Positions 13,285 to 39,790 of a DNA stretch of 42,225 nt are shown piece after piece (positions within the stretch are counted from its first letter, which is position 1; every line of letters starts with the position of its first letter). The notes beneath the pieces are model-generated. The model was not told where the DNA came from. It saw only the letters and a list, made by a program, of their open reading frames with translations, and searched no databases. Both the position numbers and the translations under genes were made by a program. The stretch comes from a virus. The stretch lies in IMG/VR virus record IMGVR_UViG_3300011116_000294, positions 1 to 42,225 of that record. One strand, written 5' to 3'.

Positions 13285-14979
13285 TCAACCAGGGATGATC
13301 AAAGCAACAGCGGCATCGTTACGCAGCTCTGCTGTACCGTACAGGGTATCAGCAGTATACAGCGTTGCTAGATACTCTTGCTTGTACTGAGCTTGTGAAC
13401 GAACAGCCATCTGCTCTGCAAGCACCATAGCATCTTTATGGAACATCAAACATGCACGAGGAGCAGTACCAGAAGTGCTGTAAGCAGTGTCAGCGTTGCT
13501 GGTGACGAACACCTTAACACCGTACACATCACCGATCTGACCGTTACGGATGGTGTTGTTAGTGCCTTGCTCACCAACAAAGGCTTGTTCAGTGAAACGA
13601 GCAAGACCCATCAGCGTGTTACGAGCAACAGGAGGAATCACCAAGCAACGACCATCTTGAGGTACGTTAGCATCATCAAGACGCTGGATGGTACGACGAA
13701 TAGCTGCATCAGTGATTGCAGTTGCGTTACCAGCACCAGCACCACCAACGAAGGCTGTAGTACCGTCACCACCGATGTAGGCAGTGGTTGTACCAGAAAC
13801 ACTGTAGTCACCAGTAGCACCAGCAGCGTGAGAACCGTTGAACAGACGACCAATCTGGATCAGATCCGTATCAACCTGTGCTGCAAGAGCATAACCAGCA
13901 TCTTCAGTGTAGAAACGACGAAGCGAAGCCAGTGCTTGAACTTCAACGATGTCTTCGATAAGACGTGAGTACTCATAGTGCTTGTTGATGGTAACTTGCA
14001 CTTCAGATTCAACGTTAGCCTGAATCGTTACAGCAGTGTTAGCTGCTTTAGCGAAGGCTGCACCACGGGTGGGGCTAGGAATGTGAAGCGTATCACCTTT
14101 CTTACCACGCATAGACATTTTATTAACAAGATTAGCCATAACAAGCGCTTTCTTGTACGATGCAATCATTATGTTACGAACATACCGTTTCCGCATGTTC
14201 TCTTTAGGTTTCCCTAAAGTTCAGACTATATCATCACTGTATTACTACAGGCTAGGCGCTTCGGAACTACTTAGTTCCTACTCCTTGCGGATAGTCGTTG
14301 AACCTTTATTTCTGCAAGCCCCTGTGATTTAAAGCAGATACAAGTTTAGGTATCTCTAATTCTCTAGTTGAGTATTCAGACCTATGCCACTTATTGTCTC
14401 TGGATTGGACCCATTCCCACACTAAGTTAGCTTGTTCTTTTTTCTCAACTAAACAATCTTTAATTACAGGTAATAGCTTATTTAGTCGTTTGAAACCCTC
14501 TATACTAATATTCCAGTATTCTTTTTGAGTTTCTTTACGAGGTTTGTAATGTGTTATGTGGTAACTTACTTCTAATCTGTCTAAAACACTACAGAATGCT
14601 TTAATGATTGGTTGACTTGTGTTAGCTACTCTAAGCCCTGGTTTATATTCGTTTTTACGATCACCACCACGACTCCACAATCCTATACAACCTTCACCAT
14701 CAATGATACCACAAAACCATCCAAACTCAAACGCAGAAATACTTGGCTGCTGATTGTCCATTGTTCATTCTCCAGATTGTCGCCTAATAAGCACTGTGAG
14801 ACTTTAGAAGTTTCCAGCAATTCACCTAGTTTTACGAGATCTATTGCGTCAAATCTCGTCCGACCAAATCTCCTATTTAACGGTCGGTATTATCCCCGAG
14901 ATATTTAAGGGATAAATTTATCTGCGTTGGTCTTGTTGACAATGGTGGAACTACCACCAGGATATGCGGCTGAAGCCAT
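13285..14979 (-). CDS. Major capsid protein, split by a group I intron
   Basis: Exon 1 (14979-14908) encodes 24 residues starting MASAAYPGGSSTIVNKTNAD and ending KFIP; AAAGGA lies about eight bases upstream. Exon 2 runs from near 14170 to 13285 and encodes about 290 residues, including IASYKKALVMANLVNKMS, KKGDTLHIPSPTRG and KHYEYSRLIEDIVEVQAL, typical of a phage capsid of HK97-type fold found in podoviruses. Unspliced, exon 1 meets a stop (CCT TAA) at once. The ATG at 14196 that opens the longest continuous frame lies in the intron and is not the true start. The mature protein forms the head shell. The exact 3' splice site is unresolved. Confidence 0.88.
14167..14907 (-). mobile_element. Group I intron in major capsid gene
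   Basis: Reading the minus strand, the 5' exon end TTATCCCT pairs with GGGGATAA just inside the intron, giving a P1 helix with the classical U-G pair at the splice site (after 14908). Near the 3' end the core pairing GACTAT/ATAGTC (14291-14296 with 14224-14229) sits in TTCAACGACTATCC and GATATAGTCTGAAC contexts, typical of T4-type P7. Two hairpins with GAAA loops follow (14202-14219 and 14178-14200), as for P9 elements. The 3' splice site must be in frame after a G and lies between about 14166 and 14199; I could not fix it. The intron encodes a LAGLIDADG endonuclease. Confidence 0.88.
14306..14761 (-). CDS. LAGLIDADG homing endonuclease, intron-encoded
   Basis: A 151-residue protein with one LAGLIDADG-type motif, FGWFCGIIDGEG (about residues 12-23), where the acidic residue D21 should bind metal. 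A single motif implies action as a homodimer. The remainder (VANTSQPIIKAFCSVLDRL, YWNISIEGFKRLNKLLPV) fits the alpha-beta fold of the family. It would cleave intronless capsid alleles and spread the intron. The gene lies wholly within the intron. Confidence 0.92.
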   Translation of the reverse strand: MDNQQPSISAFEFGWFCGIIDGEGCIGLWSRGGDRKNEYKPGLRVANTSQPIIKAFCSVLDRLEVSYHITHYKPRKETQKEYWNISIEGFKRLNKLLPVIKDCLVEKKEQANLVWEWVQSRDNKWHRSEYSTRELEIPKLVSALNHRGLQK

Positions 14980-37718: not shown

Positions 37719-37895
37719 ATGGCTTTAACGATTCTGGACTTGTTTGATAAACTAAAGAGGCTAGATGAAATATCTCTACTTGAGATATTGAACATAACAA
37801 CAGAAGAACTGGTAGATAGATTTGAGGACAGAATCGAAGCCATGTTTGACCAACTTGTTGACGAAATAGATGACACCGAAGAGGACGAAGAATGA
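37719..37895 (+). CDS. Small acidic helical protein
   Basis: A 58-residue protein (MALTILDLFDKLKRLDEISL, LEILNITTEELVDRFEDRIE) with an acidic Asp/Glu tail. AAGGAG lies five bases before ATG 37719, a better start than GTG 37713. LLEILxITxEELVDRFEDRIE is a pattern I have seen in small phage proteins of unknown role. Its TGA overlaps the ribonucleotide reductase ATG. Confidence 0.75.
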   Translation: MALTILDLFDKLKRLDEISLLEILNITTEELVDRFEDRIEAMFDQLVDEIDDTEEDEE

Positions 37896-39790
37896 AGTTA
37901 ACTAACTACTCAAGTTTTATCCACAAAAGCCGCTACAGTCGTTTCATTGACGAACAAGGCAGACGTGAGAACTGGAGTGAAACAGTTGAACGCTATATGG
38001 GATTCATGAAGAAACAACTGTTAGACAAACACAAGTATGAGATTCCACAACATATATACAAGACAGTCCACAAAGCAATCCTAAACATGGATGTAATGCC
38101 TTCGATGCGTTGTATGATGACTGCTGGAGAGGCACTTGAGCGTCAGAACATTGCTGGTTATAACTGTAGTTATCTGCCTATCGACGACCCTAAATCCTTT
38201 GATGAGGCGATGTATATCCTCCTGTGCGGTACAGGCGTTGGATTCTCAGTAGAGGCTAAGTATGTTAATCAACTCCCTGAAGTCCCTGATCAGTTATTCG
38301 ATAGTAAAACTACTATCGTGGTATCCGACAGCAAAGAGGGCTGGGCTAAAGCATTACGACAACTCATTGCTTTACTATACGCTGGAGAAATTGCAACCTG
38401 GGACGTATCCAAAGTTAGACCTGCTGGCTCAAGACTTAAGACCTTTGGAGGCAGAGCTTCTGGTCCAGAACCCCTCGTTGAACTATTCAAATTTGTTATT
38501 AGGAAGTTCCAAGCGGCCAAAAATCGTCGTCTGTCGTCCCTTGAATGCCATGATATTCTGTGCAAGATCGGGGAGGTTGTTGTTGTGGGTGGTGTGCGGC
38601 GTTCTGCGATGATCTCTTTAAGCGATCTAAGTGATGATCGTATGGCACACGCTAAAGCAGGAGCATGGTGGGAACAACAAGGACAGCGTAGCCTTGCTAA
38701 CAACTCTGCTGTTTATGATGTAAAGCCTTCAGTAGGGCAATTTATGCGTGAATGGTGTTCGATCTATGAAAGCCATTCAGGTGAACGTGGTATCTTTAAC
38801 AGAGATGCGTCGAAGAAGCAAGCAGCTATCAATGGTCGTAGAGATCCCAACCATGACTTCGGTACGAATCCTTGCTCAGAGATTATCCTTCGTCCTTACC
38901 AGTTCTGTAACCTAACAGAGGTCATTGTTCGTGATACTGACGGTATTGAAGACTTAATGTACAAAGTACGTGTAGCAGCGATTCTAGGCACTTGGCAGAG
39001 CACAATGACTAACTTCCCTTACCTACGTAAGATCTGGGAAAAGAACACCGCTGAAGAGCGTCTATTGGGTGTATCACTGACAGGTATCTACGATCATCTG
39101 TTACTGAATGATCCTGATGATAAAGCGTTACCAGCAAGGTTGGAGATGTTGAAAAATGAAGCAATCTTGGCTAACGAAGTTACAGCAAATGCTCTTAATA
39201 TCCCTGTCTCTGCTGCTATCACTTGCGTCAAGCCTTCTGGTACTGTGTCTCAGCTTTGTGGCACTGCTTCTGGCATTCATCCTCAACATGCCCACTATTA
39301 CATTAGGCGTGTACGATCGGATAAAAAAGATCCTCTCACGGCGTTTATGATCGAACAAGGTATTCCTAGTGAACCTTGTGTGATGAGACCAGACAGCACT
39401 ACTGTGTTCTCATTTCCTATGAAGGCTCCTGATGGCGCTGTCACTAGGGATGATGTAGATGCAATATCTCATCTTGAGTTGTGGCGTGTGTACCAGCTTC
39501 ATTGGTGCGAACATAAACCATCAGTAACTATCTCAGTTAATGAGAATGATTGGCCTACTGTAGGGGCTTGGGTGTATAACAACTTTGATATCTGTACTGG
39601 TGTATCGTTCCTGCCAATGGATGGAGGGACATATCGCCAGGCTCCCTATGAGACGTGTAGTAAGGAAGACTATGAAGCCTTGGTAGCTAAGATGCCCACA
39701 AACATCAATTGGGATATGCTTAAAGAGAATGATGATAACGTTGAGGGCGCACAGCAACTTGCCTGTGTTTCCGGTGTGTGTGAAATTTAA
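37892..39790 (+). CDS. nrdJ: Ribonucleotide reductase, class II (adenosylcobalamin-dependent)
   Basis: A 632-residue monomeric-type B12-dependent reductase that makes deoxyribonucleotides without oxygen. C92 in GYNCSYLPI and C339 form the active-site disulfide pair. C328 in NPCSE is the thiyl-radical cysteine, and E330 the nearby acid. C328 and C339 are 11 residues apart, as in the Lactobacillus enzyme. C625 and C630 (CVSGVC) form the C-terminal redox shuttle. The host must make or import cobalamin. The ATG overlaps the previous stop (ATGA). From 38502 on the gene lies in the terminal repeat. Confidence 0.95.
   Translation: MKLTNYSSFIHKSRYSRFIDEQGRRENWSETVERYMGFMKKQLLDKHKYEIPQHIYKTVHKAILNMDVMPSMRCMMTAGEALERQNIAGYNCSYLPIDDPKSFDEAMYILLCGTGVGFSVEAKYVNQLPEVPDQLFDSKTTIVVSDSKEGWAKALRQLIALLYAGEIATWDVSKVRPAGSRLKTFGGRASGPEPLVELFKFVIRKFQAAKNRRLSSLECHDILCKIGEVVVVGGVRRSAMISLSDLSDDRMAHAKAGAWWEQQGQRSLANNSAVYDVKPSVGQFMREWCSIYESHSGERGIFNRDASKKQAAINGRRDPNHDFGTNPCSEIILRPYQFCNLTEVIVRDTDGIEDLMYKVRVAAILGTWQSTMTNFPYLRKIWEKNTAEERLLGVSLTGIYDHLLLNDPDDKALPARLEMLKNEAILANEVTANALNIPVSAAITCVKPSGTVSQLCGTASGIHPQHAHYYIRRVRSDKKDPLTAFMIEQGIPSEPCVMRPDSTTVFSFPMKAPDGAVTRDDVDAISHLELWRVYQLHWCEHKPSVTISVNENDWPTVGAWVYNNFDICTGVSFLPMDGGTYRQAPYETCSKEDYEALVAKMPTNINWDMLKENDDNVEGAQQLACVSGVCEI

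What the first reader, a model, noticed from the sequence alone, without database searches (positions are those of the whole stretch)
14166..14979. Group I intron with LAGLIDADG gene in the major capsid gene, 24 codons from the start
Seen: P1 pairing TTATCCCT/GGGGATAA with the U-G at the splice site, the P7 pairing GACTAT/ATAGTC in canonical context, and two GAAA-capped hairpins near the 3' end. Exon 1 encodes MASAAYPGGSSTIVN...KFIP. Without splicing the capsid would stop after 24 residues. Phage group I introns are usually found in DNA metabolism genes; capsid introns are less common. Gene callers will start the capsid inside the intron.
Basis: partly seen in the sequence, partly recalled or inferred. 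Interest (0 to 1): 0.62.

Follow-up and report, generated by a model that had tools for sequence, protein, structure and literature searches.

The report
Coreless mini-intron borrowing neighbour's ribozyme
In a family of uncultured phages the major capsid gene is broken twice, by a 35-41 base scrap carrying group I intron splice signals but no ribozyme core and, seven codons later, by a complete self-splicing intron, which suggests that one catalytic RNA cuts out both.

Summary
The capsid CDS is exon 1 (24 codons) / a 35-nt element A (14907-14873) / a 7-codon microexon, EIWSDEI (14872-14852) / a 685-nt group IA-type intron B with a LAGLIDADG gene (14851-14167) / exon 3. Element A has its own guide (P1 with U·G, P10), a terminal G and a stem S pairing its middle with the microexon, but no catalytic core. 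The same layout is in seven other phages (IMG/VR), down to 52% capsid and 46% endonuclease identity; A is 35, 36, 39 or 41 nt. Eight base pairs covary on both sides across P1_A, P10_A, S, P1_B and P10_B. A and B always occur together and move as a unit between capsid lineages. Of 163 related loci 138 read straight through; others carry intron-sized insertions at A's site or 10 nt downstream. Best explanation: A is a core-less group I mini-intron excised by intron B's core. Anatomy and covariation are shown; the shared-core chemistry is inferred. Closest precedents: the 63-75-nt Phialophora introns and Twort exon skipping.

The parts
14908..14979 (-). Capsid exon 1, 24 codons (MASAAYPGGSSTIVNKTNADKFIP); its last 8 nt TTATCCCT (14915-14908) form the 5' strand of P1_A
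14873..14907 (-). Element A: 35-nt core-less mini-intron TAAATATCTCGGGGATAATACCGACCGTTAAATAG, ending in G; begins with an in-frame TAA stop
14890..14902 (-). Guide of A: GGGGATAA (14897-14890) pairs with exon 1 (P1_A); ATCTC (14902-14898) pairs with microexon start GAGAT (14872-14868) (P10_A)
   Evidence: double-sided change in P1_A (L084, L175) and P10_A (L192)
14882..14887 (-). 5' strand of stem S, CCGACC; pairs with GGTCGG (14865-14860) in the microexon
   Evidence: 42 of 42 cells paired, three pairs with double-sided changes (CGCTCC/GGAGCG in L175, CACTCC/GGAGTG in L192); recovered by unconstrained folding
14852..14872 (-). Microexon 2, 21 nt, EIWSDEI; also supplies halves of P10_A, S and P1_B
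14167..14851 (-). Intron B, complete group IA-type intron, 685 nt, ending in G
14834..14847 (-). Guide of B: GATCTCGT (14841-14834) pairs with ACGAGATT (P1_B); GCAAT (14847-14843) pairs with exon 3 ATTGC (P10_B)
   Evidence: double-sided changes in P1_B (L192) and in two pairs of P10_B
14824..14829 (-). P3 5' strand CTAGGT; partner GCCTAG at 14257-14252
   Evidence: TTAGGT/GCCTAA in L081 and L083, CTGTGT/GCACAG in L175
14306..14761 (-). LAGLIDADG homing endonuclease ORF inside intron B (151 aa, GIIDGEGCIG motif), in the P6 loop
14224..14296 (-). P7 (GACTAT 14296-14291 / ATAGTC 14229-14224), P7.1/P7.2, P3', P8
14178..14219 (-). P9 (14219-14202, GAAA loop) and P9.1 (14200-14178)
13285..14166 (-). 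Capsid exon 3 (IASYKKALVMANLV...), remainder of the major capsid protein

Best explanation
The capsid pre-mRNA holds two group I introns around a 7-codon microexon. Intron B is complete. Element A keeps only what marks its splice sites: a P1 helix with U·G at the 5' site, a P10 that would form as a contact between the P1_A loop and the loop of stem S, and a terminal G. It has no catalytic core. The three tandem hairpins P1_A, S and P1_B sit directly upstream of B's core. The core of B most likely accepts P1_A as substrate in cis: guanosine cleaves after CCCU, and the freed exon 1 attacks the site after element A's terminal G. The same core also accepts P1_B and splices B. The product is FIP-EIWSDEI-IASYKK. 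A, the microexon and B travel as one mobile unit with B's endonuclease. Shown: the anatomy, the coding continuity of intronless relatives, covariation, co-occurrence in every case seen, and co-transfer. Inferred: that A is removed as RNA, that B's core does it, and the order of steps.
For: Eight phages share the layout. Joining exon 1, microexon and exon 3 restores the uninterrupted protein of relatives in all eight. 221 of 231 pair cells hold, eight pairs have double-sided changes over five helices, and 0 of 2000 strand permutations reach the number of paired cells. Stem S changes three pairs while the Ser codon moves TCG to AGC or AGT, so the microexon is under coding and RNA constraint together. 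Unconstrained folding returns exactly P1_A, S and P1_B. Neither A nor B was seen alone in 163 capsid loci or in pattern and protein scans. Subtypes of A follow subtypes of B, not the capsid. No second group I core lies in the window. Intronless L001 matches exon 3 at 866/882 but differs at 6 of 21 microexon positions, all synonymous, as expected if the microexon came in with the element. A scan not told the microexon sequence found the most divergent member.
Against: No RNA data: neither excision has been observed. A 35-nt element has nothing that can itself catalyse, so sharing of B's core is the economical reading but not a demonstrated one. P1_A must reach the core across S, the microexon and P1_B, with P1_B competing for the same dock. 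Exon skipping (exon 1 to exon 3) would also be in frame and could occur as well. Seven distinct sequences is a small set for covariation, and most double-sided changes come from two divergent members.
Confidence: 0.72

Rival explanations
1. One large intron (14907-14167) with P1_A as its only working P1; the microexon is skipped and the capsid reads FIP-IASYKK.
For: P1_A, S, P1_B and then the core is topologically possible for a single intron; the skipped product is in frame; group I exon skipping is reported in phages Twort and SIOphi (PMC11878797).
Against: P10_A matches the microexon, not exon 3. P10_B covaries with exon 3 and P1_B with the microexon's end, so B's own guide is in use. The microexon keeps EIWSDE[I/V] through synonymous changes in all eight. 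The residues are conserved in uninterrupted relatives.
Confidence: 0.08
2. Element A is excised without intron B's core: by itself, helped by exon sequence, or by a core or host factor acting in trans.
For: Fungal Phialophora introns of 63-75 nt with P1, P7, P10 and a pairing of intron middle with 3' exon are reported to splice, with help from exon RNA (PMC3160393).
Against: A is about half that size and has no P7. It is never found without B. No other group I core was detected in the window.
Confidence: 0.1
3. Ribosomes skip element A by translational bypass (as in T4 gene 60 or mitochondrial byps) or by frameshifting.
For: A stop codon directly follows the CCT codon in six of eight members, as in T4 gene 60; A is short and structured.
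Against: The codon before resumption is TAG, TTG or CTG, never one that fits the take-off CCT. Lengths of 35, 36, 39 and 41 nt keep no common frame. The conserved features are group I guides, covarying with the exons.
Confidence: 0.03
4. Element A is a dead relic of a lost intron, or an assembly error, and the capsid gene is broken.
For: Intron-sized insertions with a LAGLIDADG ORF occupy exactly the same site in seven relatives, so a deletion relic is easy to make.
Against: Eight contigs carry it, with covariation and retained coding. Decay would not keep three compensated pairs in stem S.
Confidence: 0.04

Closest known systems
Phage group IA introns with homing endonucleases, including the mycobacteriophage LittleE capsid intron (PMC3706429)
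   Same: Intron B: P1 with U·G, P10, P3-P9 core, terminal G, endonuclease gene in a loop, capsid gene host
   Different: LittleE has a single intron in its capsid gene; here a core-less partner intron and a microexon are part of the element
Small degenerate group I introns of Phialophora, 63-75 nt (PMC3160393)
   Same: [quoted passage not shown] most of the core missing
   Different: Those are in fungal nuclear rRNA, keep a P7, end in U, and no neighbouring intron core is invoked; A is 35-41 nt, ends in G, lacks P7 and always sits 21 nt from a complete intron
Exon skipping by group I introns in Twort orf142 (Landthaler and Shub 1999, cited in PMC11878797) and phage SIOphi
   Same: Group I introns in one phage gene with cross-talk between splice sites of neighbouring introns
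   Different: As cited, an exon is skipped between introns; here one of the two introns has no core at all
Euglenid reduced (group III) introns and twintrons, reduced from group II (from general knowledge)
   Same: Shrunken introns thought to depend on catalytic parts supplied from elsewhere
   Different: Group II lineage, plastid, trans factors; here group I, probably in cis, in phages

Membership tests
Group I intron (intron B) | P1 with U·G at the 5' splice site and P10 to the 3' exon | tested here: met
   both helices covary
Group I intron (intron B) | P3-P8 core with P7 guanosine site, terminal G | tested here: met
   P3, P8 and P9 show compensatory changes; Rfam RF00028 E 3e-7
Group I intron (intron B) | Rfam RF00028 curated gathering score | tested here: not met
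   35.9, 38.2 and 41.4 bits against 50; the endonuclease gene splits the core, so the score is split
Group I intron (intron B) | Self-splicing activity | not testable with these tools
   needs RNA
Group I intron (element A) | P1 with U·G, P10, terminal G | tested here: met
Group I intron (element A) | Own P3-P8 catalytic core | tested here: not met
   35-41 nt, nearly all accounted for by guide, stem S and 3' end; no core between 14907 and 14873
Phialophora-type small group I introns | Pairing between intron middle and 3' exon | tested here: met
   stem S
Phialophora-type small group I introns | P7 within the small intron; terminal U | tested here: not met
   no room for P7; all eight end in G
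Translational bypass element (T4 gene 60 / byp) | Landing codon fitting the take-off codon | tested here: not met
   CCT against TAG/TTG/CTG
LAGLIDADG homing endonuclease | LAGLIDADG motif and domain | tested here: inconclusive
   Pfam LAGLIDADG_3 22.2 bits against cut-off 22.5; GIIDGEGC invariant in aligned members

The most novel reading that the evidence does not exclude
A single group I ribozyme core routinely splices two introns in one transcript: its own, and a neighbouring 35-41-nt intron that consists only of guide and splice-site signals. The pair, with the microexon between them, forms one mobile element, in which A may also mask the target site of rival homing introns.
Probability: 0.65. 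Interest if true: 0.87.

Novelty: new variant of a known kind. Interest (0 to 1): 0.78.

Why it matters
If right, this is a natural case of a group I intron reduced to its splice signals that depends on a neighbour's catalytic core. That is the kind of step proposed for how self-splicing introns became dependent on shared machinery, for which group II offers examples but, as far as I know, group I does not. It would be among the smallest group I-type introns known, in an essential and highly expressed gene, and it can be tested with one short transcript. It also warns that annotation will miss both the microexon and the start of the capsid gene.

Tried and rejected
Frameshift and bypass were rejected on landing codons and lengths. 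Internal re-initiation: no start codon sits in frame before the microexon in the window (TAG there; TTG in L012, L084 and L192, CTG in L175). Another group I core in the window acting in trans: none found. Relatives in bacterial and archaeal genomes and in INPHARED phages: none for the endonuclease. The MAFFT alignment A3 shifts stem S by one column in L175 and L192, so I counted pairs on a hand-set alignment; that alignment leans toward the structure, which is why I also cite the unconstrained fold and the scan not told the microexon sequence. In that scan, L189, L239 and L221 were treated as chance: four hits were found in shuffled sequence. The insertions in L005 and L006 look like group I introns by eye (guide, terminal G, LAGLIDADG ORF) but gave no RF00028 match at E<=0.1, so I do not claim a tested core for them. 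Landthaler and Shub 1999 is not held.

Full report
What is in the sequence. On the minus strand the capsid gene starts at 14979 and reads MASAAYPGGSSTIVNKTNADKFIP, then stops at TAA. The best relative of exon 3, L001, is intronless and reads FIP-EIWSDEI-IASYKK without a break. The gene is therefore interrupted twice. The first interruption, element A, is 35 nt (14907-14873). The second, intron B, is 685 nt (14851-14167) and contains the LAGLIDADG ORF.

Intron B. It has its own P1 (ACGAGATT/GATCTCGT, U·G at the splice site), its own P10 (GCAAT with exon 3 ATTGC), a P3-P9 core of IA type with P7.1/P7.2, and a terminal G. Rfam RF00028 matches both halves of the core at 35.9 and 18.8 bits, below the curated 50, most likely because the endonuclease gene splits it; the homologues L175 and L192 score 38.2 and 41.4. 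P3 (CTAGGT/GCCTAG, TTAGGT/GCCTAA, CTGTGT/GCACAG), P8 and P9 change in a compensated way.

Element A. It has a guide: GGGGATAA pairs with exon 1 TTATCCCT (U·G at the 5' site), and directly next to it ATCTC pairs with the first five bases of the microexon. It ends in G. Its middle, CCGACC, pairs with GGTCGG in the microexon (stem S). The remaining bases leave no room for a core. Two of a million composition shuffles give a guide this good with a terminal G. An unconstrained fold of 14925-14818 returns exactly three tandem hairpins, P1_A, S and P1_B (z -2.7). The two halves of P10_A then lie in the loops of P1_A and S, so P10_A would be a loop-loop contact that brings the two splice sites of A together.

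Relatives. A DNA pattern for A, one for the microexon with its flanks, and the endonuclease protein all found the same five further contigs. A profile of the endonuclease added L175. A scan of 74 contigs with the same core motif, looking only for P1 + P10 + terminal G and not told the microexon sequence, recovered all of these and added L192. In the eight, A is 35 nt four times, 36 nt twice, 39 nt and 41 nt, and joining the exons always restores the capsid protein. L192 is 52% identical to the window in capsid and 46% in endonuclease.

Covariation. Over seven distinct sequences 221 of 231 cells pair, and eight pairs change on both sides: one in P1_A, one in P10_A, three in S, one in P1_B, two in P10_B. 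None of 2000 strand permutations reaches the number of paired cells. Stem S is the strongest single case: CCGACC/GGTCGG, CGCTCC/GGAGCG, CACTCC/GGAGTG, while the serine codon goes TCG, AGC, AGT. The microexon is thus held by coding and RNA pairing at once. The set is small and most changes come from two divergent members.

A and B are one unit. Of 163 capsid loci (some contigs counted twice because two searches fetched them), 138 are uninterrupted, 6 are cut too short to judge, 7 carry an intron-sized insertion at A's site, 7 loci (6 contigs, since L068 and L095 are the same one) carry one within the Ser codon of EIWSDE, and 5 carry A plus B; none has A or B alone. L083 and L084 have nearly the same capsid exons (96-97%) but different A (75%) and B (89%). 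L084 and L012 share A (97%) and B (95%) with more distant exon 3 (85%). So A follows B, not the capsid. L001 shows the empty site: exon 3 866/882 identical and its first 170 bases identical, yet 6 of 21 microexon bases differ, all synonymous. The microexon came in with the element.

Mechanism. Because A has splice signals but no core, was never seen without B, and the window has no other detectable group I core, the economical reading is that B's core accepts both P1_A and P1_B. Shown: anatomy, coding continuity, covariation, co-occurrence, co-transfer. Inferred: RNA excision of A, use of B's core, cis action, order. Exon skipping may occur as a side product; it is in frame and has phage precedents.

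Compared with what is known. Group I introns in phage capsid genes are known (PMC3706429). Very small group I introns with P1, P10 and an intron-exon pairing are known from Phialophora, but they keep P7, end in U, and are larger (PMC3160393). I found no report of two introns sharing one core; the library searched lacks most subscription journals. Element A fails the group I membership test on the core; it works like a group I intron only if a core is lent to it.

Evolutionary guess. Three sites within about 21 nt of this gene are used by different insertions, so the target is contested. Element A may be what remains of an intron at the first site after its core was lost, tolerated because B could splice it, and possibly kept because it masks the site from rival endonucleases. 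This is untested.

Noticed in passing
L005, L010, L017, L048, L049, L063, L066 (site FIP^EIW); L006, L008, L013, L067, L068, L094 (within the Ser codon of EIWSDE): Two further intron-like insertions of roughly 600 nt with LAGLIDADG-like ORFs sit in the same short stretch of the capsid gene in related phages: three insertion sites competing for one target. They look like group I introns by eye, but L005 and L006 gave no Rfam match at E<=0.1.
   Followed up: partly
L001:1-22 and exon 3; window 14166-13285: L001 is a near-identical intronless allele (exon 3 866/882) whose microexon differs at 6 of 21 bases, an apparent snapshot of a recent homing event with co-conversion.
   Followed up: yes
window 14196-13285: The ORF as a gene caller would take it starts at an ATG inside intron B (MRKRYVRNIM...) and so adds ten intron-encoded residues and loses exon 1 and the microexon.
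   Followed up: yes
window 14761-14700: The start of the endonuclease gene (MDNQQPSI) overlaps strands of the ribozyme core (P4/P6), which probably explains why these codons are the most conserved of the ORF.
   Followed up: partly
window 37892-39790: A ribonucleotide reductase (phrog_367, B12-dependent insertion domain) in a phage genome of about 42 kb.
   Followed up: no
L081, soon after 1440: L081's capsid reading frame breaks 51 codons into exon 3, unlike its near twin L082; possibly a contig chimera.
   Followed up: no
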